From a virus, in the IMG/VR virus record IMGVR_UViG_3300003702_000318, positions 1 to 34,177 of that record: 34,177 nucleotides of DNA; one strand, 5' to 3'. Position numbers and translations under genes: made by a program. Of the stretch, positions 16,211-27,064 are shown piece after piece. Below the pieces are notes generated by a model. The model had not been told where the DNA came from and ran no database searches. It was given only the letters and a program-made list of their open reading frames with translations. Position 1 is the first letter of the stretch. Each line of letters opens with the position of its first letter.

Positions 16211-17383
16211 ATGATGAGAAATGGAAAAGGACCAATCGTGAATCTTACTCCTCGTAAAAAGTTGTTTGTGGATACCGCCGCTGAAATGTTCGGTGATGGT
16301 GCCACTTTGACAAAGACTCAGACCAAGGCTGCCGCTGAGAAAGCCGGCATTCCGTTTCCAACTTGGTTTCGGAAATATTGCTCTGTTGGATATAATATGT
16401 ACGAACTGCCTTCTGAAGCTGGTTCTACAAACTCTGTTGTTTCTACTCCTGTCGAAGCAGATGCTGCGATGGTTAATCTGGTTGCGACTGGCATAGCCAA
16501 ACAGAATCTTGTTCCCGCTCCATTTGAAGGGTTTGTGCCCTGGGGCAATTTCTCAAAGATTGAGAAGGTCGTTAAGTCTGGTTTGTTTTATCCGATCTTT
16601 GTTACTGGTTTATCTGGTAATGGTAAGACGTTGATGATTGAACAGGTTCACGCCAAATTGAATAGGGAACTTATTCGGGTGAATATCACCATCGAGACTG
16701 ATGAGGATGATTTGCTCGGCGGGTTTCGTTTGATTAATGGTGAAACCAAGTTTGTACCCGGCCCTGTTATCGAAGCGATGGAACGTGGTTGCACTCTGCT
16801 TCTAGATGAGTGCGATCTAGGTTCCAACAAGTTGCTTGCTCTGCAGCCGGTGCTTGAGGGTAAGGGTGTTTATCTCAAGAAGATCAATCAGTGGGTTACT
16901 CCAAAGGATGGTTTTAATGTGATGGCAACTGCTAACACTAAGGGTAAGGGTTCAGAAGATGGACGGTTTATCGGAACCAACATTCTCAATGAAGCATTTT
17001 TAGAGCGGTTTGCAATTACGCTGGAACAGCCCTATGCAACTGCTAAGACTGAGAAGAAGATCGTAATCAACTCTATGAAAAAATATGGTGAGGTTGATGA
17101 GGATTTTGCAAACAATCTAATCACTTGGGCTGAAGTTATTCGTAAGACCTTCTATGATGGTGGCGTTGATGAAGTCATCTCGACTCGTCGGTTAGACCAT
17201 ATTGTAAAGGCCCTTACCATCTTTGGTGATAAGATGGAAGCAATCGAACTCTGCGTTGCTCGGTTTGATGAAGACACTAAGGCCTCCTTCCTTGACCTTT
17301 ACACCAAAATTGATGCTGGTATTGTTACCAGTGAAGAAGATGCTGCTGAGGCAAAGGTAGAAGAAAAAGAGGAAGCGTTTTAA
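16211..17383 (+). CDS. MoxR/CobS-like AAA+ ATPase
   Basis: 390 residues. AAA+ core: Walker A GLSGNGKT (K139 counting from ATG 16211), the MoxR-type segment TIETDEDDLLGGFRLINGETKFVPGPVIEAMERGC, Walker B LLLDECD (D199/E200), sensor-1 region NVMATANTKGKG and ILNEAFLERFAITLEQPY. These segments are the ones by which marine phage proteins get labelled CobS, but the same residues occur throughout the MoxR family. Its partner is the upstream VWA/metallopeptidase protein. The start is uncertain: ATG 16211 coincides with the predicted transcription start, while GTG 16238 has a good AAAAGGA (16225-16231) and begins NLTPRKK. The first ~110 residues form an extra N-terminal domain with a helix-turn-helix-like TKTQTKAAAEKAGIPFPTWF. 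It ends in an acidic tail. Confidence 0.93.
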   Translation: MMRNGKGPIVNLTPRKKLFVDTAAEMFGDGATLTKTQTKAAAEKAGIPFPTWFRKYCSVGYNMYELPSEAGSTNSVVSTPVEADAAMVNLVATGIAKQNLVPAPFEGFVPWGNFSKIEKVVKSGLFYPIFVTGLSGNGKTLMIEQVHAKLNRELIRVNITIETDEDDLLGGFRLINGETKFVPGPVIEAMERGCTLLLDECDLGSNKLLALQPVLEGKGVYLKKINQWVTPKDGFNVMATANTKGKGSEDGRFIGTNILNEAFLERFAITLEQPYATAKTEKKIVINSMKKYGEVDEDFANNLITWAEVIRKTFYDGGVDEVISTRRLDHIVKALTIFGDKMEAIELCVARFDEDTKASFLDLYTKIDAGIVTSEEDAAEAKVEEKEEAF

Positions 17384-17604: not shown

Positions 17605-17649
17605 ATAATGGGGTGCATAACGCAATCTTGCTTAGTAAAGGAGATTAAA

Positions 17650-18087
17650 ATGGTTACAAGCAATGCACTAAGTCTATTCGACAACTTCAATAAACTAACG
17701 CCCTATGCAGTCGGGTTTGATCGAGTTTTCGACAACCTTCAACGCTATGTGGACAATAATGTAACGTCCACAGGGTTTCCACCTTATAACATTCGGAAGG
17801 AAGGTGATTACAAGTATGTAATTGAGATGGCCCTTGCCGGATTCGGTAAGAAGGACATTGAGGTGGAAGTTTCTGATGGTACTCTTTCTATTCGTTCAGT
17901 GAAAGAGAACATCGAGGATGATGACACGATTTATCGTGGAATTTCCTATCGGCGATTTGAACGTAAGTTTACTGTCGCTGATGATGTTGTTGTTAACAGC
18001 GCCTCTTTGGAAAACGGTATGCTCATGGTTGAACTTGAACGCATCGTTCCAGAGGAAAAGAAGCCTCGTATTATTACGGTAAAGTAA
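17650..18087 (+). CDS. hsp20: Small heat shock protein, Hsp20/alpha-crystallin family
   Basis: A 145-residue chaperone of the IbpA type that holds unfolding proteins. It has an N-terminal segment with SLFDNFNKLTPYAVGFDRVFDN, which recalls IbpA, and the alpha-crystallin domain from PYNIRKEGDYKYVIEMALAGFGKKDIEVEVSDGTLSI. The family motif near the end reads SASLENGMLMVELERIVPEEKKPRII (GxLxxxLxR type). The start is ATG 17650 with AAAGGAG at 17637-17643. An in-frame upstream ATG (17608) lies inside the structured leader and lacks a ribosome site. Phage hsp20 genes are common in marine T4-like phages and may help virion assembly. It is bounded by a long structured leader and a downstream hairpin, so it is probably a single-gene unit. 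Confidence 0.94.
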   Translation: MVTSNALSLFDNFNKLTPYAVGFDRVFDNLQRYVDNNVTSTGFPPYNIRKEGDYKYVIEMALAGFGKKDIEVEVSDGTLSIRSVKENIEDDDTIYRGISYRRFERKFTVADDVVVNSASLENGMLMVELERIVPEEKKPRIITVK

Positions 18088-18179: not shown

Positions 18180-19187
18180 ATGAAAATATTTGAATTTAAT
18201 AGTCCAGAAGAAATGAAAGATGGAGCTGTTGCTAAACGAGTTGATGGAGAGGGCAATCCAGTTGATGAAGATGGTACTCCTATAGTTACAGTAGATTCTG
18301 CTGTTGATCAGGGAAAGTCATTTGACGGAGAAACTGAAGATGCTAAATATGCTCGCGAAGAAACAAAACGAATCTTTGAAGAAGAAACAAAAATGCTCGA
18401 AGAAAATCATGGACTAAGTTTTGCGATTCGTCCTATTAAAAATTTCTGTATAGGCAGAATTGAATTTCCTATGGAAATTATTGATGAGGTTAATGAACAT
18501 ATTGATAATAAAATTATACCACACTCAAAAAGTTTTGCTGATGGTTTGGTTGGTCAACTTAAAAATGATAAAAAATCAGCACAATTAGATTTTCCTCTTG
18601 ACGATGATATTGGTCAACAATTAAAAACAGTTTTCGATCAAGTAGGCACTACTTATTTGAAACAAGGTTATGAGAGAGATGCAACAGCAGAGTGTTTTCA
18701 ATGTTGGACAAATCATGCTTATGCTGGAGATTATAATCCTTATCACGATCATGGCACCCAGTCGCTTGCCGGTTTATCTGGATTTCTTTGGTTAAAAGTT
18801 CCAGAATGTATTAGTGAACTTAATGAAGTTCCAGAAAGCTTAAATAATGCAAGTGGTTCTATTGATGGATTTACTCACTTGGTCTGGGGCACAAATTCAC
18901 GAAGAGATGTTCTTCAATTAAAATGTCAAACTGAAGATTATGTTAAACCAGTGGTTGGAGTTATGTTAGTATTTCCCTGTTGGTTGAAACATGCAGTTTT
19001 ACCTTTTTTTGGTGAAGGTGAAAGACGTTCAATGGCTATGAATTGGAACGTAAAAGATTCAGAACAGGAATTATTTAAACATTTATCGGAACGTGAGAAG
19101 AAAAATTATAGTAAAATAAAAATTGAAAAAGAGGAACTTACTAAAAGTAAGCCGGTATTGGAAGCATCAGATATAGGACCAGTATAG
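18180..19187 (+). CDS. 2OG-Fe(II) oxygenase-like protein with acidic N-terminal extension
   Basis: 335 residues. The first ~80 are acidic and disordered-looking (DGEGNPVDEDGTPIVTVDSA). The oxygenase domain follows: NHAYAGDYNPYHDHGT (Fe-binding His residues), LSGFLWLKVPE, SIDGFTHLVWGTNS, VFPCWLKHAVLPFFGEGERRSMAMNW (distal His and Arg). The gene at 21597 is a clear paralogue sharing HxYAGDYNPxHxHGT, DGxTxxVWG and PFFGEGERRxM, but lacks the acidic extension. The C-terminal 45 residues are Lys/Glu-rich. Substrate unknown. It is the first gene of the operon containing the sliding clamp and loader, so it is probably expressed early with replication genes. Confidence 0.82.
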   Translation: MKIFEFNSPEEMKDGAVAKRVDGEGNPVDEDGTPIVTVDSAVDQGKSFDGETEDAKYAREETKRIFEEETKMLEENHGLSFAIRPIKNFCIGRIEFPMEIIDEVNEHIDNKIIPHSKSFADGLVGQLKNDKKSAQLDFPLDDDIGQQLKTVFDQVGTTYLKQGYERDATAECFQCWTNHAYAGDYNPYHDHGTQSLAGLSGFLWLKVPECISELNEVPESLNNASGSIDGFTHLVWGTNSRRDVLQLKCQTEDYVKPVVGVMLVFPCWLKHAVLPFFGEGERRSMAMNWNVKDSEQELFKHLSEREKKNYSKIKIEKEELTKSKPVLEASDIGPV

Positions 19188-19206
19188 GGTGTTGTTAAAC
19201 CATTTG

Positions 19207-19485
19207 ATGAAAATTGAATACAAGTATAATGAAGATAAAGCATTAGCTGAACTCTCAAAGTATATTGATTCTACATATGATGAACATTATAGCAAGAACA
19301 AGTTTCAAGCTACAGAATTTATCATAGATGGTGGTCATGGTGAAGGGTTTTGTATCGGCAATATACTAAAATATGCACAACGGTATGGAAAGAAGAATGG
19401 TAAGGATAGAAGAGACTTGCTAAAAGTGATACATTATGGTATCATAGCGCTATACATTAATGAAATGGAGAATAGTGAAGAATGA
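19207..19485 (+). CDS. DUF3310/SaV-like small protein
   Basis: 92 residues from ATG 19207; a GTG at 19189 would add six residues but has no ribosome site. The C-terminal half, GEGFCIGNILKYAQRYGKKNGKDRRDLLKVIHYGIIALYI, matches the pattern of DUF3310 (phage nucleotide kinase-like, F-GNxxKYxxRxGxK-xxDLxKxxxYxxxxL), a short helical domain common in phages. Its function is not established. The gene ends in an ATGA overlap with gene 45, so it is coupled to clamp synthesis. Confidence 0.75.
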   Translation: MKIEYKYNEDKALAELSKYIDSTYDEHYSKNKFQATEFIIDGGHGEGFCIGNILKYAQRYGKKNGKDRRDLLKVIHYGIIALYINEMENSEE

Positions 19486-20144
19486 AATTAAGTAATGAAA
19501 CGGTATCTGTATTGAAGAATTTTGCTACAATCAATCAGAACCTTGTGATTAAGAGTGGTCAGAAGTTAACTACAATGTCTGCGATGAAGAATATTGTAGC
19601 AAAAGCTACAGTAAAGGAAAAGTTTCCTAAAGAGTTTGCTATCTATGATTTAAATGAATTTTTATCGGCAATATCTTTGTTTACAAAACCAGAGTTAGAT
19701 TTTAAAGATGACTTTGTTGTGATTACAGAAGAAGGCAATAAAGAACGATTGAAGTATTGGTATTCTGATCCGTCAGTGGTTACTACGCCGACTAAAGATA
19801 TTACTATGCCAGAGTGTGAAGTAAAATTTAATTTATCTAGTGATCAACTTTCAACAATTACTAAAGCGGCCGCAGTTATTGGTGCGCCTGATATGTCACT
19901 TGAAAATGGAAGTCTTAAAGCTACAGACAAAAAGAATGATACTGCAAATGACTATGTAATGGATTTGGAAGTTGATAGCAAAAGTAGTGATTATAATTTC
20001 TGGTTTAGGGTTGAAAATTTAAAACTTATTCCTGGCTCTTATGATGTTCAAGTATCTTCTAAAAATATTAGTCATTTTAGGAATTCAACAGGAAATGTTG
20101 AATACTTTATTGCTCTGGAACCAGAGTCTAATTACAATGCCTAA
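19482..20144 (+). CDS. 45: Sliding clamp gp45
   Basis: DNA polymerase processivity clamp and coactivator of late transcription. The 220-residue protein fits T4 gp45 (228). It starts MKLSNETVSVLKNFATINQNLVIKSG, a typical gp45 N-terminus. It then shows alternating beta segments with IYDLNEFLSAISLF, a segment around LKYWYSDPSVV and the C-terminal YFIALEPESNYNA. It is followed by gene 44 and, after three inserted genes, gene 62. The order 45-44-62-regA-43 is that of T4. It would link replication with gp55-dependent late transcription. Confidence 0.94.
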   Translation: MKLSNETVSVLKNFATINQNLVIKSGQKLTTMSAMKNIVAKATVKEKFPKEFAIYDLNEFLSAISLFTKPELDFKDDFVVITEEGNKERLKYWYSDPSVVTTPTKDITMPECEVKFNLSSDQLSTITKAAAVIGAPDMSLENGSLKATDKKNDTANDYVMDLEVDSKSSDYNFWFRVENLKLIPGSYDVQVSSKNISHFRNSTGNVEYFIALEPESNYNA

Positions 20145-20161
20145 TTTGAGGATTTTATATT

Positions 20162-21097
20162 ATGGAAACATTTTTGTGGGTAGAACAGTACCGTCCCAAG
20201 GACATAGAGTCGTGTGTACTTCCCAAGACTTTAAAAGATACACTAACTGATTTTATTAGTGAAGGTAAATTACCAAATTTAATTTTTTTTGGTCCGCCCG
20301 GTGTTGGTAAAACAACAGCTGCTAAAGCATTAATTGAAAAAATTAATGCAACTTATATAATGATAAATGGTTCTGAGGAATCTGGAATTGATGTTTTAAG
20401 AACCAAAATTAAAAATTTTGCGTCCACTGTTTCGCTTCATGGTGGTCGTAAATATGTTATACTTGATGAAGCAGATTATTTAAATCCACAATCAACCCAA
20501 CCAGCTTTGCGAGGGTTTATAGAAGAGTTTCATAAGAACTGTGGATTTATTTTTACTTGTAATTATAAAAATCGTTTGATACCACCACTACATTCTCGTT
20601 GTAGTGTTATTGATTTCTCTATTCCAAATTCAGAAAAACAGAAACTTGCTTCTGAATTTTTTAAAAGAGTCATAACAATTCTTCAAGATCAAAATATTGA
20701 ATATGATAAGAGAGTTGTTGCAGAAGTAATCAATAAATACTTTCCAGACTGGCGTAGGGTGTTAAATGAACTACAAAGATATTCTGTGTCAGGTGCAATT
20801 GATGCAGGCATACTTGTAGATATTGCGGAAGTAAATATCAAAGAGTTAATGCACTCTATGAAGAATAAGGAGTTTACTAATGTTCGCAAGTGGGCTGTCG
20901 ATAATTTGGACAACGATCCAGTTCGGTTGTTTCGTCGTATCTATGACAATCTTTATGACTATGTGGATAGTAACAGTATTCCCCATGTGGTTGTTGTTCT
21001 CGGCGAGTATCAATATAAAGCAGCGTTTGTCGCAGACCAAGAAATTAATTTAATGGCTTGTCTTACAGAAATAATGGCTCGGACAAAATTTAAATGA
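20162..21097 (+). CDS. 44: Clamp loader large subunit gp44
   Basis: AAA+ ATPase that with gp62 loads the gp45 clamp. FLWVEQYRPKDIESCVLP at the N-terminus, P-loop GPPGVGKT at 44-51, Walker B ILDEADYLN, arginine-finger/SRC motif PPLHSRCSVIDF, and the C-terminal helical collar region. The 311 residues compare with T4 gp44 (319). GAGG upstream of ATG 20162 is a reasonable ribosome site. The stop codon overlaps the next start as ATGA. Confidence 0.96.
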   Translation: METFLWVEQYRPKDIESCVLPKTLKDTLTDFISEGKLPNLIFFGPPGVGKTTAAKALIEKINATYIMINGSEESGIDVLRTKIKNFASTVSLHGGRKYVILDEADYLNPQSTQPALRGFIEEFHKNCGFIFTCNYKNRLIPPLHSRCSVIDFSIPNSEKQKLASEFFKRVITILQDQNIEYDKRVVAEVINKYFPDWRRVLNELQRYSVSGAIDAGILVDIAEVNIKELMHSMKNKEFTNVRKWAVDNLDNDPVRLFRRIYDNLYDYVDSNSIPHVVVVLGEYQYKAAFVADQEINLMACLTEIMARTKFK

Positions 21098-21597
21098 TTG
21101 ATGTATATGATAATGTATTAGAAGAACACAACGCTATATTGGTTGATGATGAAGTTAAAAAGATAAGTTGGAAATACGATTATTCATCTGAACCTAGTAA
21201 ACCAAATAAACACTGGCATGTTCTTTGCGGTCATAATGAAAAAGAGTGTGGCACATCAGGATATATTTGGGCCAATGATATATTTAATGCGTTCGTAAAT
21301 AAATTTAATTTCAACTCAAAATATAATGTTGAAGATTATGAAAGAATTTATTGTAATGCTCATACACATGGAATAGAACCTCATCTTCATATAGATGATG
21401 GTGATTTCACAATGATATACTACCCCCGAATCGATTGGAAAAAAGAATGGGGTGGTGGTCTTCCTCATATGGCTATGCCGGTATCTAGGGAATGTTATGA
21501 ACTAAGGACTAATGTTGTTTTTAAATGTTTTGAACCATCACATGCTTGGAACCAAGTGTCAGCGTTTGAAGATAATTTCGAGGGCAGTATATCATAA
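21094..21597 (+). CDS. 2OG-Fe(II) oxygenase-like protein
   Basis: 167 residues with a compact double-stranded beta-helix pattern. YCNAHTHGIEPHLHIDDGDFTMIYYP supplies an HxD-type iron site (HIDD), a strand pair reading WKKEWGGGLP follows, and NVVFKCFEPSHAWNQVS carries the distal histidine. The Gly-rich GGG sits where the family has EGGxL. Translation is coupled to gene 44 (ATGA at 21094) and to the next oxygenase (TAATG at 21597). Substrate unknown. This family is repeatedly present in marine T4-like phages, and the position inside the clamp-loader operon suggests early expression. Confidence 0.75.
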   Translation: MIDVYDNVLEEHNAILVDDEVKKISWKYDYSSEPSKPNKHWHVLCGHNEKECGTSGYIWANDIFNAFVNKFNFNSKYNVEDYERIYCNAHTHGIEPHLHIDDGDFTMIYYPRIDWKKEWGGGLPHMAMPVSRECYELRTNVVFKCFEPSHAWNQVSAFEDNFEGSIS

Positions 21598-22298
21598 TGA
21601 CAAATAATAAAATAGTCCAGTTTGAAACTATACCACAAATAAAATTAGGTTTTGCTTCAATATCTTTAGATGAGGTGGATATTATTAATAAGTATATTGA
21701 TGATAATATTCATAGATTGCCAGATTTATCACACCAATTGGTAGGACAAATAAAACAAAACAAAAGATCATCACAACCAGAATTTAATTTAAATGATGAA
21801 GTTCCTAGACAATTAGGTAATTTCTTTATTCAATGTGCAAAAGAATATGCTGCTGAACATCCATTGTCGGATCGTATGAAACAAACTATTGGACTTAAAG
21901 AAGATTATATTATTAAAAGCATGTGGTCGGTACATAGTTATGCTGGAGATTATAATCCTTTACATGAACATGGAACTATGAGTGGAAGAGGAATATCTAT
22001 TATTGTATTTTTAAAACTTCCTCCACAAATAACTCTATTAGCAGATGGAATGGAAGGTGAAATAGCTGTACAACATGGAAATTCTGGTAGTACAGATGGT
22101 TTAACTCAATTTGTTTGGGGTGGAGACAGTATGTATGATATGGCTAGATTTAAGCATCCCTCCTTTGCACATGTACATCCAGAAATAGGAAAGGCTGTTA
22201 TATTTCCGATTTGGTTGTTTCATCAAGTATCTCCATTTTTTGGAGAAGGGGAAAGACGAACAATGTCTTGTAATATTAATATAATTAATCATGTATGA
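21597..22298 (+). CDS. 2OG-Fe(II) oxygenase-like protein, paralogue of the 18180 gene
   Basis: 233 residues. VHSYAGDYNPLHEHGTMSGRGISIIVFLKLP carries the first iron ligands, then STDGLTQFVWGGDS, AVIFPIWLFHQVSPFFGEGERRTMSCNI with the distal His and Arg. It matches the C-terminal two-thirds of the protein encoded at 18180, including HxYAGDYNPxHxHGT and PFFGEGERR, and also the upstream LVGQIKQNKRSSQPEF (paralogue LVGQLKNDKKSAQLDF). The pair probably arose by duplication, and the 18180 copy has an acidic extension. It overlaps the next small reading frame by 8 bases. Confidence 0.8.
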   Translation: MTNNKIVQFETIPQIKLGFASISLDEVDIINKYIDDNIHRLPDLSHQLVGQIKQNKRSSQPEFNLNDEVPRQLGNFFIQCAKEYAAEHPLSDRMKQTIGLKEDYIIKSMWSVHSYAGDYNPLHEHGTMSGRGISIIVFLKLPPQITLLADGMEGEIAVQHGNSGSTDGLTQFVWGGDSMYDMARFKHPSFAHVHPEIGKAVIFPIWLFHQVSPFFGEGERRTMSCNINIINHV

Positions 22299-22410
22299 AT
22301 TAAAAGTTAAAAATGGAACGTATAAAGAAAACAGTTTAATATCTTTATTGTGGACTGTATTTTGTCATAGATTTCATCATTGGAAAAGAGGTGAAGGGTT
22401 TATAGACTAA
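22291..22410 (+). CDS. Small ORF (39 residues) between gene 44 block and gene 62
   Basis: ATG 22291 reads MYELKVKNGTYKENSLISLLW and continues with a His/Arg-rich end (CHRFHHWKRGEGFID), stopping at 22408-22410. It overlaps the upstream oxygenase stop by 8 bases and joins gene 62 by TAATG. Its first 16 bases (ATGTATGAATTAAAAG) are repeated exactly at the start of gene 62 (22410-22425). Without it there would be a 110-base untranslated gap in an otherwise gapless operon. No family recognised; no clear ribosome site. Confidence 0.55.
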   Translation: MYELKVKNGTYKENSLISLLWTVFCHRFHHWKRGEGFID

Positions 22411-22808
22411 TGTATGAATTAAAAGATTATCTTAATGCGATAAATTACACAAAAGAAAATCTGTTAGATACAGAAGATGAACAATGGGAGAAGAAATATT
22501 TTCCATTTATTGTAAATAAATGTGTAGCTCCATTTCCTGATACCATCATGTTAGTGAATGAGATTAACCAATTGCATTATCTAGATAAGAAACTCCAATT
22601 TGATTTTTTGATAAATAGTCTAAGACCAAGGAAAAGATATACACCTTGGCTGAAGGCGAAGAAATTAAAAAATCTAGAGTATGTTAAAGAGTATTATGGA
22701 TATAATAATGAAAAAGCAAAAGTCGCTCTTGATATACTAAATGATGAACAAATTTCTGCCATAAAAAGAAAATTAAATAAAGGTGGAAGAAATGCAGGAA
22801 ATTATTAG
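22410..22808 (+). CDS. 62: Clamp loader small subunit gp62
   Basis: 132-residue partner of gp44 in the clamp loader. It is not an ATPase and has no P-loop. The sequence is of gp62 type: an N-terminal helix, NKCVAPFPDTIMLVNEINQLHYLDKKLQFDFLINSLRPRKRYTPWLK in the middle, then VKEYYGYNNEKAKVALDILNDEQ. T4 gp62 is longer (187), so this is a short form, as I recall for marine relatives. The position between gene 44 and regA supports the call. Confidence 0.88.
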   Translation: MYELKDYLNAINYTKENLLDTEDEQWEKKYFPFIVNKCVAPFPDTIMLVNEINQLHYLDKKLQFDFLINSLRPRKRYTPWLKAKKLKNLEYVKEYYGYNNEKAKVALDILNDEQISAIKRKLNKGGRNAGNY

Positions 22809-22824
22809 TTGGACACAAGAGCAT

Positions 22825-23199
22825 ATGTTAGAAATTGGGTTGAAAGAACCTGATGATTTTTTAAAGGTACGCGAAACTCTATCTCGTATTGGTGTTGCTT
22901 CTAGAAAAGAAAGAAAACTATATCAGTCTTGCCATATTTTACATAAGCAGGGGCGTTATTATATTGTGCATTTTAAAGAATTATTTGCACTTGACGGCAA
23001 AAATACAAATTTGTCAGAGAATGATATTGCAAGAAGAAATACGATTGCAAATTTATTAAAAGATTGGGGTCTTATTAATGTGATTGGAACTGTGACAACT
23101 GTAGCTCCATTAAGTCAAATAAAAGTATTATCCTTTCGTGAAAAGAATGATTGGACATTAGAAACCAAATATAATATAGGTAAGAAAAAAGAAGTCTAA
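22825..23199 (+). CDS. regA: RegA translational repressor
   Basis: RNA-binding protein that blocks translation of early phage mRNAs at their start sites, including its own and those of genes 44/45 in T4. Starting at ATG 22825 the protein (124 residues) begins MLEIGLKEPDDFLKVRETLSRIGVASRK, which lines up with the T4 RegA start as I recall it. Then come LYQSCHILHKQGRYYIVHFKELFALDG and LLKDWGLI, both strongly conserved. An in-frame ATG 22792 with an AAAGG site upstream would add 11 residues and is a possible alternative. The stop overlaps the next gene by TAATG. Confidence 0.95.
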   Translation: MLEIGLKEPDDFLKVRETLSRIGVASRKERKLYQSCHILHKQGRYYIVHFKELFALDGKNTNLSENDIARRNTIANLLKDWGLINVIGTVTTVAPLSQIKVLSFREKNDWTLETKYNIGKKKEV

Positions 23200-24584
23200 T
23201 GGAAAATTTCAAATCTTTTATAACAGAGGAAAAGTCCGAAAATTATCGTCTGGTTGTTGTAACCAATAAACCAGATAAAAATGAATATTTTCATACGACT
23301 CAAAGACTGTTAGATGAGGCTAAAAAACTTGGTATTCCTGCTTATGCATTGATGGCAGAATCTGCAAATATTGTAGATGGTCAAGTTTGGAACTCAGGTG
23401 ACGAAAAAAATAAATTCGATATATCTCCAGATGATACCATATGTATTATTCGTGGGTCTGTCGCTCGTAGAGATGCTTATCTTGATCTAGTTTCTCAATT
23501 AGAAAAACTAGGTGTGTCTGTAGTAAATAGTAGAGATTCAATCTCAATATGTGTTGATAAATATCGTAGTTCATTACGATTTGCTGATACAGGTGTTCCT
23601 ACACCAAAAACTGCATTGGTACAGAGTGAGGAAACTTTACAAGCTTCATTAGACATTATTGGTGAAGAGTATCCAATAATATTAAAAACTCTTAGAGGTT
23701 CAAAGGGTGTTGGTGTTATCTTTATTGAATCTAAACGACAATTAACTTCTCTGGTTCAGTTACTATGGAAGCAAGATGAAAAAACTGAAATACTTTTACA
23801 ATCCTATATCAAATCAGATTTTGATGTTCGTGTGTTAGTTCTTAACGGTAAAATTTTAACTGCAATGCGTAGAGATGTGTTGGAAGGCGATTTCAGAAGC
23901 AATTATTCCCAAGGTGCTAAAGTTAAAGAATATAAGTTAAATGATAATGAAATTGCAATTTGTCTTAATGCTGATAAAGCAGTTGGTGGTATCTATACTG
24001 CTGTTGATTTTATTAAGACCGGCAAGGATATTTTTGTATTGGAAGTTAATAGTTCACCTGGCACAGAAGGTATTGAAGAAGCAACTGGTCGTAACTTGAT
24101 AAAAGAAATTCTTGTACATTTTAAGAATAGAGAAAGTTGGCGTTGGGTTGCTGAAGAAATTGGTAGATTTGAATTATTACATATAGAAGGTGTTGGAGAC
24201 ATTGTTGCAAATTTTGATACTGGTAATAGTGCTAGGTGTATTATTCATGCAGACAAATATAATGTAAAGGGTGACACAGTAACTTGGGAAGCCCAAGGTA
24301 AAAAATATAAACATAAATTAGAAAAAATGACAAAGTGGGAAAGAGGAGCGCTTGCTGCTGAGGTTATTGAGCGTCCACTTATACTGCTGGATATTAATTT
24401 TAATGGTACATTATACAAAGATGTTAAATTTGCTATAGATGACAGAACCGAAAAAACTACAAAATGTTTGATGAACCAAGATTTTATGAAGCGTGCTAAA
24501 GTTATGATTAATCCATCAAGAAAATTTGTGGTTACAGATAGACATGATGATTTTGAAATATTTGATAACCCCCTTGACAATTAA
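23199..24584 (+). CDS. RimK-type ATP-grasp ligase fused to a RimB-like retropepsin-type protease
   Basis: 461 residues in two domains. Residues about 15-310 form an ATP-grasp ligase of the RimK (ribosomal protein S6 glutamate ligase) type. Visible are VNSRDSISICVDKYRSSLRFADTGVPTPKT, the glycine-rich ILKTLRGSKGVGVIFIE (161-177), DVRVLVLNGKILTAMRR and the metal-binding LEVNSSPGTEGIEEATG (281-297). Residues about 325-455 carry an aspartic protease DTG motif (340-342, in ANFDTGNSARCIIHAD) and the distal pattern ERPLILLDINFNGTLYKDVKFAIDDRTEKTTKCLMNQDF, matching the RimB/ATP-dependent zinc protease family PF05618. In bacteria RimK adds and RimB removes glutamates on S6. Here both are in one chain, between regA and DNA polymerase. 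Confidence 0.85.
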   Translation: MENFKSFITEEKSENYRLVVVTNKPDKNEYFHTTQRLLDEAKKLGIPAYALMAESANIVDGQVWNSGDEKNKFDISPDDTICIIRGSVARRDAYLDLVSQLEKLGVSVVNSRDSISICVDKYRSSLRFADTGVPTPKTALVQSEETLQASLDIIGEEYPIILKTLRGSKGVGVIFIESKRQLTSLVQLLWKQDEKTEILLQSYIKSDFDVRVLVLNGKILTAMRRDVLEGDFRSNYSQGAKVKEYKLNDNEIAICLNADKAVGGIYTAVDFIKTGKDIFVLEVNSSPGTEGIEEATGRNLIKEILVHFKNRESWRWVAEEIGRFELLHIEGVGDIVANFDTGNSARCIIHADKYNVKGDTVTWEAQGKKYKHKLEKMTKWERGALAAEVIERPLILLDINFNGTLYKDVKFAIDDRTEKTTKCLMNQDFMKRAKVMINPSRKFVVTDRHDDFEIFDNPLDN

Positions 24585-24602
24585 CTTCAAAGGTGATATA
24601 GT
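24574..24602 (+). promoter_or_regulatory. Sigma70-type promoter for DNA polymerase gene 43
   Basis: TTGACA (24574-24579), a 17-base spacer and TATAGT (24597-24602). The predicted start of transcription is about 24609, exactly the ATG that begins MNFYTNVIQW. The -35 box overlaps the last codons of the RimK-RimB gene. Confidence 0.7.
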
Positions 24603-24608
24603 TACTAT

Positions 24609-24805
24609 ATGAATTTCTACACAAATGTAATTCAATGGGGAAATAATCTCCTTGTTCGTGAAATTAAAAATGCACTCTTTATGCTTTTGTAAAAGAGAAA
24701 ACTCCCTATAAAACACTTGAAGGCGAATACGTTACAGATATATCTTTTGATACAATTAAAGAAGCTAAAGAGTGGATAGAAAACACTAAAAGTCAACCAG
24801 AACTT
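24609..24805 (+). other. 43: Frameshifted N-terminal coding segment of gene 43
   Basis: ATG 24609 reads MNFYTNVIQWGNNLLVREIKN, the usual start of marine-phage gp43, but then goes out of frame and stops at 24690-24692. From 24668 the polymerase frame is open: CTLYAFVKEKTPYKTLEGEY, continuing without a stop into the gp43 body. This frame is closed upstream by TAA at 24665-24667 and contains no ATG before the GTG at 24806. The residues normally found between REIKN and TLYAF (about eleven, from memory of relatives) are absent, so a deletion of some 30 bases with a frame change sits at about 24671. Confidence 0.75.
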
Positions 24806-27064
24806 GTGTATGGCAATACACAATATCCCTACACTTATATTTCTGACACTTATAAAGGTAGAGTTAATTGGGACTTAGAAAAACTTCTAATGGTCACAAT
24901 TGATATTGAGGTTCAGTGTGAAAATGGTTTTCCCTCTCCCAGTAAGGCTGAAGAAGAACTATTATCCATTACAATCAAAAATCATCAAAGTAAACGTATT
25001 GCTGTTTGGGGTATCGGTGATTTTAAAACAGATCGTGAAGACATAACATATATAAAATGTGAAAGTGAAGTACATCTACTAAAAGAATTTCTTGTGTTCT
25101 GGGAAAAATATTGGCCCGATATTGTTACAGGGTGGAATTCGGAGTTTTTTGATATTCCTTATATTTGTAATAGAATCAAAAAACTTTTTGGTGAAAAAGA
25201 ATTAAAACGTCTGTCTCCTTGGGGTGGCGTCAGAGATCGTGAAGTTTATCAGATGGGCCGAACTCATCAAGTGTATGATATACAAGGTATTGCTGCACTG
25301 GATTATTTTGATTTGTACCGAAAATTTACTTATTCTGCTCAGGAATCATATCGTCTAGACCATATTGCATTTATTGAATTGGGAGAACGTAAAGAAGGTA
25401 ATCCTTATGAGACTTTTCGTGAGTGGTATACGAAAGATTATCAATCATTTATTGAATACAATATAAATGATGTTGAGTTGGTTGATAAACTAGAAGACAA
25501 AATGAAACTAATTGAATTATGTTTAACTATGGCTTATGATGCTAAAGTTAATTATACAGATGTGCTTGGTTCGGTTCGTTATTGGGATATTCTTATATAT
25601 AATTATTTGAGGGAAAAGAATATCGTTATTCCTCAGAAATCAAAATCAGAAAAGGTTGAGAAATTTGAAGGTGCATATGTAAAAGACCCTCTTGTTGGTA
25701 TGCATAAATGGGTTATGTCGTTTGATTTAAATTCTCTATATCCTCATTTAATTATGCAATATAATATTTCACCAGAGACATTGGTTTCTTCTAGTGAAAA
25801 GAAAGATGGTTTAGTTAATAAAATACTTAATGGTGAAATAAAGAATGACACTGATTATTGTATGACTCCGAATGGCGCATTTTTTAGAAAAGATAAAAGA
25901 GGATTTCTGCCAGAAATTATGGAGATTATGTATAATGATCGTACAAAATATAAAAAACTTATGCTGGATGCTAAGCAAAAATATGAAGATACTAAAGACC
26001 CTAAACTTCTCAAAGACATTTCAAAATATAACAACATTCAAATGGCAAAAAAAATCTCTCTTAATTCTGCTTATGGTGCGATTGGGAATAATTGGTTTAG
26101 GTATTTTGATCTTATGGTTGCTACAGCTATTACGCTTTCTGGGCAACTATCTATACGATGGATTGAAAAAGCTCTTAACATTTATCTCAACAAACTCTTG
26201 GACACAAAAAATGAAGATTATGTTATTGCATCTGATACTGATTCCGTTTACATTACTTTTGACAAGTTGGTTAATAACGTGTTTAAAGAGGGAACAGAAC
26301 CTAGCAGAATTGTCGATTTCTTGGACAAGATTGCAACTGAGAAGTTGGAACCTTTTATTGATAAAAGTTTTACAGCTCTTGCTAAGACTGTAAACGCATA
26401 CGATCAAAAAATGATTATGAAACGTGAGGTGATTGCGGATAAAGGAATCTGGACTGCAAAGAAAAGATATATTTTGAACGCCTGGGATGTTGAAGGTGTA
26501 CGATACAAGAAACCTCAACTCAAAATCATGGGCATTGAAGCAGTCAAGTCATCCACACCCGCTGTATGCAGACAAAAGATTAAGGACGCATTGAATATTA
26601 TTATGACGGGTGATGAGAAAGAATTAAATAATTTCATTCAAGAGTTCAGAGAAACTTTTATGAAACTACCACCAGAAGATGTTGCATATCCTCGTTCGGT
26701 AAATGGACTTAAAAAGTTTTCCTCTTCTAATGGCATGTTTGCAAAAGGGGCTCCTATTCATTGTAAGGGAGCAATTTTGTATAATTATTTGTTAAAGAAA
26801 AATAAATTGTCTCATAAATATCCTGCAATTCTAGAGGGTGATAAAATTAAGTTTCTTCATTTGAAACAACCAAATGTTTATACATCAAGTGCATTTTCTT
26901 TTATAACTTTTATGCCAAAAGAACTTGACATTATGGACAAAATAGACTATGATATACAGTTCACCAAGAGTTTTGTTGAGCCGTTGAAATTTATTACTGA
27001 GAAGATACGTTGGAAAATTGATGACAGTTATGGAACTCAGGGAACATTAGAGGACTTTTTTTAA
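24806..27064 (+). CDS. 43: DNA polymerase gp43 (family B), uninterrupted part
   Basis: Replicative polymerase with 3'-5' exonuclease. Counting from GTG 24806: Exo I TIDIEVQ (D33, E35), Exo II NSEFFDIPY, Exo III YNINDVELVDKLE. Polymerase motif A is FDLNSLYPHLI (D307), motif B KISLNSAYGAIGN and motif C ASDTDSVY (D477, D479). The C-terminus QGTLEDFF is an exact clamp-binding (PIP-like) motif QxxLxxFF for gp45. The 752 residues lack the first ~60 of the N-terminal domain, which are encoded upstream but out of frame. GTG 24806 has no ribosome site and is not a convincing native start. The downstream gene begins one base after the stop. Confidence 0.95.
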   Translation: MYGNTQYPYTYISDTYKGRVNWDLEKLLMVTIDIEVQCENGFPSPSKAEEELLSITIKNHQSKRIAVWGIGDFKTDREDITYIKCESEVHLLKEFLVFWEKYWPDIVTGWNSEFFDIPYICNRIKKLFGEKELKRLSPWGGVRDREVYQMGRTHQVYDIQGIAALDYFDLYRKFTYSAQESYRLDHIAFIELGERKEGNPYETFREWYTKDYQSFIEYNINDVELVDKLEDKMKLIELCLTMAYDAKVNYTDVLGSVRYWDILIYNYLREKNIVIPQKSKSEKVEKFEGAYVKDPLVGMHKWVMSFDLNSLYPHLIMQYNISPETLVSSSEKKDGLVNKILNGEIKNDTDYCMTPNGAFFRKDKRGFLPEIMEIMYNDRTKYKKLMLDAKQKYEDTKDPKLLKDISKYNNIQMAKKISLNSAYGAIGNNWFRYFDLMVATAITLSGQLSIRWIEKALNIYLNKLLDTKNEDYVIASDTDSVYITFDKLVNNVFKEGTEPSRIVDFLDKIATEKLEPFIDKSFTALAKTVNAYDQKMIMKREVIADKGIWTAKKRYILNAWDVEGVRYKKPQLKIMGIEAVKSSTPAVCRQKIKDALNIIMTGDEKELNNFIQEFRETFMKLPPEDVAYPRSVNGLKKFSSSNGMFAKGAPIHCKGAILYNYLLKKNKLSHKYPAILEGDKIKFLHLKQPNVYTSSAFSFITFMPKELDIMDKIDYDIQFTKSFVEPLKFITEKIRWKIDDSYGTQGTLEDFF

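What the first reader, a model, noticed from the sequence alone, without database searches (positions are those of the whole stretch)
23199..24584. RimK ligase and RimB-like protease fused in one phage protein
An ATP-grasp glutamate ligase domain is joined to a DTG aspartic protease-like domain (D340) of the PF05618 type. In Pseudomonas the separate RimK and RimB proteins add and remove glutamates on ribosomal protein S6 and change which mRNAs are translated. A single phage chain, located between the translational repressor regA and the polymerase, could be a ribosome-reprogramming enzyme with writing and erasing activity in one molecule.
Basis: partly seen in the sequence, partly recalled or inferred. 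Interest (0 to 1): 0.75.

Follow-up and report, generated by a model that had tools for sequence, protein, structure and literature searches.

The report
Phage glutamate ligase fused to protease
A marine phage gene joins an enzyme of the kind that adds glutamates to proteins with a retroviral-type protease of the kind that cuts poly-glutamate; the gene arrangement was first reported in 2008 before the protease half was understood, and its target protein is still untested.

Summary
The 461-residue ORF at 23199-24584 (+) carries a RimK-family ATP-grasp ligase (residues ~97-310) followed by a PF05618 retropepsin-like domain with D340-T341-G342, between regA and a T4-type polB. Sequence profiles, AlphaFold/Foldseek (closest: RimK crystal structures; RloA, Lpg0085 and HIV-1 protease) and relatives all agree. 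In 74 full-length relatives both active sites are invariant. Of loci with enough flank, 68 of 70 have regA directly upstream and 62 of 65 have polB downstream.

It is not a new kind. Monier et al. 2008 (PMC2530865) already described regA-rimK-polB marine phage contigs, several with a C-terminal DUF785 (= PF05618). Ligase-protease fusions also occur in bacteria (protease first; one is a proven protease) and haloarchaea (same order as here). What can now be added is that DUF785 is a poly-glutamate-cutting retropepsin in studied relatives, so the phage chain is plausibly a writer plus trimmer.

The S6 ("ribosome reprogramming") part is unproven. All phage versions score far below the S6-ligase model that true RimKs pass; one poly-glutamate contact (R8) is lost; the one bacterial hybrid tested did not glutamylate S6; and a Yersinia phage homologue is found in virions. 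Verdict: real, conserved, mostly known; target open.

The parts
23199..24584 (+). Fused gene: N-terminal RimK-family ATP-grasp ligase plus C-terminal PF05618 retropepsin-like domain, 461 aa (called RimKB here)
23247..24128 (+). Ligase half: RimK pre-ATP-grasp-like N-terminus plus ATP-grasp (residues ~17-310; PF08443 at 120-305). Catalytic/ligand residues K121, K163, R211, D270, E282, N284
   Evidence: PF08443 E=7.8e-40; Foldseek best hits RimK 5zct, 7qys, 5zk6, TM by target length 0.82-0.87; residues invariant
24150..24551 (+). Retropepsin-like PF05618 domain (residues ~318-451)
   Evidence: 27.6 bits, above cut-off; 41 of 41 relatives match; profile vs 9g59 E=6.5e-8, 2pma E=2.8e-4; Foldseek 9g59, 2pma, 9g58, HIV-1 protease
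24216..24224 (+). D340-T341-G342, predicted catalytic aspartate motif
   Evidence: invariant in 74 relatives; aligns with the DTG of bacterial RimB
22783..23199 (+). regA translational repressor, directly upstream; its TAA overlaps the RimKB ATG by one base
   Evidence: PF01818, phrog_242
24806..27064 (+). T4-type family B DNA polymerase downstream (annotated frame lacks its N-terminus; see Noticed in passing)
22410..22808 (+). Clamp loader small subunit (gp62-like), conserved neighbour
20162..21097 (+). Clamp loader large subunit (gp44-like), conserved neighbour
19482..20144 (+). Sliding clamp (gp45-like), conserved neighbour

Best explanation
The gene encodes a two-domain protein-modifying enzyme of marine T4-like phages. 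The N-terminal half is an ATP-dependent RimK-family ligase that, by homology, joins L-glutamate to the C-terminus of a protein. The C-terminal half is a PF05618 retropepsin that works as a dimer and trims poly-glutamate chains, so that one polypeptide both writes and limits the modification; it may also tune the ligase, as free RimB does. It is co-transcribed and probably translationally coupled with regA in the phage replication operon, so it acts early to middle in infection. The target is most likely a protein of the translation machinery (S6 first candidate), but this last step is a guess. Shown: fold (by prediction), both active-site motifs, gene order, purifying selection. Inferred: glutamate as the added residue, poly-glutamate as the protease substrate, dimerisation, timing, target.
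For: Ligase: PF08443 and TIGR00768 above cut-off; fold closest to RimK incl. the poly-glutamate synthetase and RimK-RpsF structures; Mg/ATP residues and the poly-glutamate contacts R64, R189 and N262 of RimK (PMC10092738) invariant as R85, R211 and N284. Protease: PF05618 in 41 of 41; fold RloA/DUF785/HIV protease; DTG invariant in 74. Both characterised PF05618 groups cut poly-glutamate: RimB with D31 essential (PMC11957791) and RloA (PMC12239564). Both domains under purifying selection. regA directly upstream in 68 of 70 loci, often overlapping or within 3 nt. YerA41 homologue is middle-expressed (PMC7354516).
Against: No activity has been measured for any phage member. Ligase is far below the S6-ligase equivalog cut-off (101.6 vs 331; controls pass). 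R8, a poly-glutamate contact of RimK, is not conserved (N23), and H215/R216 are S237/Q238. The conserved LLGR motif of PF05618 is LMNQ here: G lost, R present in 46 of 74 and Q in 25. Desulfotalea RimBK did not glutamylate the S6 offered (PMC11957791). Melnitz phages keep only the ligase at the same locus, and YerA41 and L049/L050 carry the gene away from regA, so neither the eraser nor the regA link is universal.
Confidence: 0.5

Rival explanations
1. Same enzyme chemistry, but the target is not the ribosome: it modifies a phage or other host protein (replication or virion protein), or makes free poly-alpha-glutamate, as RimK does when stimulated by RimB.
For: The YerA41 homologue (g112) is packaged in virions by LC-MS/MS and sits next to ribonucleotide reductase genes (PMC7354516). 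Phage members fail the S6-ligase equivalog. RimB diverts RimK to free poly-glutamate (PMC11957791). The marine copies sit in the DNA replication operon.
Against: Virion proteomes of large phages can contain incidental enzymes. Neighbour regA regulates translation. No conserved Glu-tailed partner was found: the one window ORF ending in SEE (19189-19485) does not keep that tail in relatives.
Confidence: 0.33
2. The retropepsin domain is not a protease in this phage but a dimerisation and regulatory module of the ligase.
For: The LLGR motif, equivalent to the retropepsin GRN/D motif (own knowledge), is altered to LMNQ in the window and lacks G in the relatives aligned; score to PF05618 is weak. 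Free RimB changes RimK ATPase activity (PMC10092738, PMC11957791). Melnitz dispenses with the domain.
Against: D-T-G-N-S, R392 and R416 are invariant in 74 relatives down to 36% identity, and dN/dS of this domain is 0.07-0.15, hard to explain without catalysis.
Confidence: 0.15
3. A LysX/ArgX-, MptN- or CofF-like ligase acting on a carrier protein or cofactor, unrelated to protein glutamylation.
For: The MptN model scores higher than the S6 model (148.5 vs 101.6 bits). The YerA41 record notes a LysW-like ORF a few kb away.
Against: All of these equivalogs are far below cut-off (MptN 350, LysX 275.6, CofF 300). No LysW- or cofactor-pathway genes were seen beside the gene in the window or in Mosig. 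The fused retropepsin has no role in those pathways (own knowledge).
Confidence: 0.05

Closest known systems
Marine phage RimK with C-terminal DUF785, Monier, Claverie and Ogata 2008 (Genome Biol 9:R106, PMC2530865)
   Same: Same architecture (ATP-grasp then PF05618), same regA-rimK-polB context, more than 100 GOS contigs with phage RimK; the authors proposed S6 modification by analogy with the T7 kinase.
   Different: DUF785 had no known function then; the writer/eraser reading, invariance of both active sites, structural model and probable independent origin are added here.
Bacterial hybrid RimBK (Desulfotalea psychrophila DP2392; JBC 2025, PMC11957791); Thioclava L101
   Same: RimK and RimB domains in one chain; protease activity shown for Desulfotalea.
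   Different: Opposite order (protease N-terminal); ligase part groups with bacterial RimK, not with the phage clade; Thioclava passes the S6-ligase model, the phage protein does not.
Haloarchaeal 'RimK/LysX family protein' (L098, L099, L106, L111)
   Same: Same order, ligase then PF05618.
   Different: Separate clade in both domain trees; no phage context; uncharacterised.
Pseudomonas RimK + RimB
   Same: Ligase and retropepsin of the same two families, opposing activities on S6 tails.
   Different: Separate proteins; the phage ligase is about 25% identical to RimK structures and its protease matches no RimB equivalog.
Pelagibacter phage Mosig gp5 (QOI68969, 'putative glutathione synthetase') and Yersinia phage YerA41 gp66 / GN1 ('structural protein')
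   Same: Full-length homologues at 44% and 36% identity; Mosig and GN1 pass the PF05618 cut-off.
   Different: Mosig keeps the regA-polB context; YerA41/GN1 sit beside ribonucleotide reductase genes and the YerA41 protein is virion-associated.

Membership tests
RimK family alpha-L-glutamate ligases (TIGR00768 / PF08443) | Profile score above curated cut-off | tested here: met
   TIGR00768 175.8 bits vs 143.4; PF08443 136.9 vs 21
RimK family alpha-L-glutamate ligases (TIGR00768 / PF08443) | ATP/Mg and substrate residues (E. coli K141, R189, D248, E260, N262) | tested here: met
   K163, R211, D270, E282, N284 invariant
RimK family alpha-L-glutamate ligases (TIGR00768 / PF08443) | Glutamate is the amino acid added | not testable with these tools
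   needs biochemistry
30S ribosomal protein S6--L-glutamate ligase (RimK proper, NF007764) | Equivalog score above 331 bits | tested here: not met
   101.6 bits; E. coli 670, Allocoleopsis 424, Thioclava 379 pass
30S ribosomal protein S6--L-glutamate ligase (RimK proper, NF007764) | Poly-glutamate contacts S7, R8, S14, R64, S68, R189, N262 (PMC10092738) | tested here: inconclusive
   R64, R189 and N262 kept; S7 and S14 are Thr; R8 is Asn; S68 ambiguous in alignment
30S ribosomal protein S6--L-glutamate ligase (RimK proper, NF007764) | Glutamylates S6 | not testable with these tools
PF05618 retropepsin-like peptidases | Profile match | tested here: met
   27.6 vs 27 bits for the domain; 41 of 41 relatives match; Mosig and GN1 pass as full proteins
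PF05618 retropepsin-like peptidases | Retropepsin fold | tested here: met
   Foldseek of the predicted model: 9g59, 2pma, 9g58, then HIV-1 protease E=6e-4
PF05618 retropepsin-like peptidases | Catalytic DTG | tested here: met
   D340-T341-G342 invariant in 74
PF05618 retropepsin-like peptidases | LLGR (GRN/D-type) motif | tested here: not met
   LMNQ in the window; roughly L-x-[ND]-[RQ] in relatives. A typical rather than a strictly defining feature of the family
PF05618 retropepsin-like peptidases | Poly-glutamate cleavage, dimeric | not testable with these tools
   needs biochemistry
RimB equivalog (NF052261) | Score above 200 bits | tested here: inconclusive
   Window has no match at E<=1 while RloA2 matches at 5.6e-5; but a RimB encoded beside rimK (Salinivibrio) also scores only 134.6, so the cut-off is very strict
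Bacterial RimBK hybrid | PF05618 domain N-terminal to RimK | tested here: not met
   Order is reversed
Marine phage RimK-DUF785 of Monier 2008 | Ligase, C-terminal PF05618, regA flank, T4-like polB contig | tested here: met

The most novel reading that the evidence does not exclude
A phage-specific, independently formed writer-plus-trimmer of C-terminal poly-glutamate that reprograms host (SAR11/OM43) ribosomes during infection, encoded in the core replication operon of widespread ocean viruses and, in one lineage, carried inside the virion.
Probability: 0.22. Interest if true: 0.75.

Novelty: new member of a known kind. Interest (0 to 1): 0.42.

Why it matters
If the activity is real, a widespread group of marine phages encodes both the writer and the eraser of a protein modification in one chain, next to the regA translation repressor. 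Phage RimK has been on record since 2008, no test of it was found here, and retropepsin-type RimB was explained only in 2020-2025, so the target question is now directly testable with purified protein or with cultured phages (Mosig, YerA41).

Tried and rejected
(1) Rfam search for a glutamine riboswitch or other RNA near the gene, prompted by the glutamine riboswitches reported for Melnitz and Mosig (PMC9004378): nothing in the window. (2) A Glu-tailed phage protein as substrate: the ORF at 19189-19485 ends in SEE but its relatives do not keep the tail. (3) Common origin with bacterial RimBK or with haloarchaeal fusions: both domain trees keep the phage proteins as their own clade; long branches limit this, so a single very old fusion is not excluded. 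(5) Host S6 tail: no SAR11 genome could be reached. (6) LysX/MptN/CofF: all far below their cut-offs. (7) Paper search for SAR11 RimK: none found.

Full report
WHAT IS THERE. The ORF 23199-24584 (+) codes for 461 residues and starts inside the regA stop codon, TAATG. Pfam finds a RimK ATP-grasp (residues 120-305, E=7.8e-40) and, after it, PF05618 'Zn_protease' (335-445, E=4.2e-5; a shade below cut-off in the full chain, above it when the domain is scanned alone). Upstream are the T4-type clamp, two clamp loader subunits, two ORFs (one a 2OG-Fe(II) oxygenase) and regA; downstream is a family B polymerase.

STRUCTURE. An AlphaFold model made from 41 relatives has mean pLDDT 82.9 and pTM 0.76. 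Its best PDB matches are RimK structures: the poly-glutamate synthetase 5zct, Pseudomonas 7qys and 7qyr, and the RimK-RpsF complex 5zk6. The C-terminal domain modelled alone (pLDDT 81.7) matches, in order, P. aeruginosa RloA2, Legionella Lpg0085 (DUF785), P. fluorescens RloA, and then HIV-1 protease.

BOTH ACTIVE SITES ARE KEPT. In 74 distinct full-length relatives, down to 36% identity (Yersinia phage GN1, the same at YerA41), K121, K163, D209, R211, D270, E282, N284 and D340-T341-G342-N343-S344 never vary. Pairwise dN/dS is 0.08-0.20 for the ligase and 0.07-0.15 for the protease. One caution: the LLGR motif of bacterial PF05618 proteins is LMNQ in the window.

DISTRIBUTION. Of 86 loci examined, 68 of 70 with enough sequence have regA directly upstream and 62 of 65 have polB downstream; these loci were chosen by similarity and are not independent. 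Named full-length relatives are Pelagibacter phage Mosig (annotated 'putative glutathione synthetase') and the Yersinia phages YerA41 and GN1. Melnitz methylophages have a ligase-only version before polB and after the clamp loader genes, nested in the phage clade, which suggests loss of the protease; its branch is long. Cyanophages carry a different ligase-only RimK that groups with bacterial RimK.

FUSIONS ELSEWHERE. Bacterial hybrids have the protease first (Thioclava; Desulfotalea, PMC11957791). Haloarchaeal plasmids have the same order as the phage. In trees of each domain the phage proteins form their own clade (96/92 and 100/99), so the phage fusion is probably separate, though long branches leave an old common origin possible.

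WHAT IT PROBABLY DOES. The characterised members of PF05618, RimB and RloA, both cut poly-glutamate (PMC11957791, PMC12239564), and RimK makes it. A fused pair is best read as a glutamate writer with its own length limiter. Whether the target is S6 is open. Against S6: the ligase fails the S6 equivalog that E. coli, cyanobacterial and Thioclava proteins pass, the R8 contact is lost, and the tested hybrid did not modify the S6 offered to it (PMC11957791). In favour: only the regA neighbour and family analogy. The YerA41 homologue is middle-expressed and found in purified virions (PMC7354516), which allows delivery with the DNA but may be incidental.

NOVELTY. Monier, Claverie and Ogata (2008; PMC2530865) reported this gene in marine phage contigs: rimK flanked by regA on a polB contig, several with C-terminal DUF785; they also noted the bacterial and haloarchaeal fusions and suggested S6 modification. 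The window protein is therefore a new member of a known kind. Added here: identification of DUF785 as a retropepsin in this context, invariance of both active sites, the fold, the failure of the S6 equivalog test, linkage counts, probable independent origin, and the virion-associated relative.

Noticed in passing
24585-24810: The 5' part of polB is broken in this record: the first 25 residues of a relative's polymerase match one frame and residues 38 onward match another. The apparent gap after RimKB is thus coding; could be an assembly error or a real lesion.
   Followed up: partly
L021 3607-4992, L091 5748-7106, L097 5738-7111: In these contigs the clamp, clamp loader and regA neighbours are about 70-86% identical to the window's but RimKB only 46-48%, as if two alleles of RimKB were exchanged within an otherwise similar operon.
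   Followed up: no
L021 (PAWD01000042.1): A contig filed in a Thaumarchaeota MAG carries the phage clamp-regA-RimKB-polB operon; most likely a phage contig binned by mistake.
   Followed up: no
L049, L050: Two contigs carry RimKB away from regA and polB, beside ORFs resembling a carbamoyltransferase fragment and a radical-SAM-like protein (identified by eye only).
   Followed up: no
16211-17383, 17608-18087, 18180-19187, 21597-22298: Other typical marine T4-like phage genes: a phrog_249 ATPase labelled porphyrin biosynthesis, an Hsp20 protein and two 2OG-Fe(II) oxygenases.
   Followed up: no
L105 2462-2896 (huge phage LR756502): A stand-alone PF05618-like protease with DTG and LIGR motifs in a 642-kb uncultured phage genome; BFVD also lists stand-alone phage PF05618 proteins.
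   Followed up: no
MT647606 Mosig_00005 (L015 4995-6380): The homologue is annotated 'putative glutathione synthetase', and YerA41 gp66 'structural protein'; both names hide the RimK-retropepsin architecture.
   Followed up: yes
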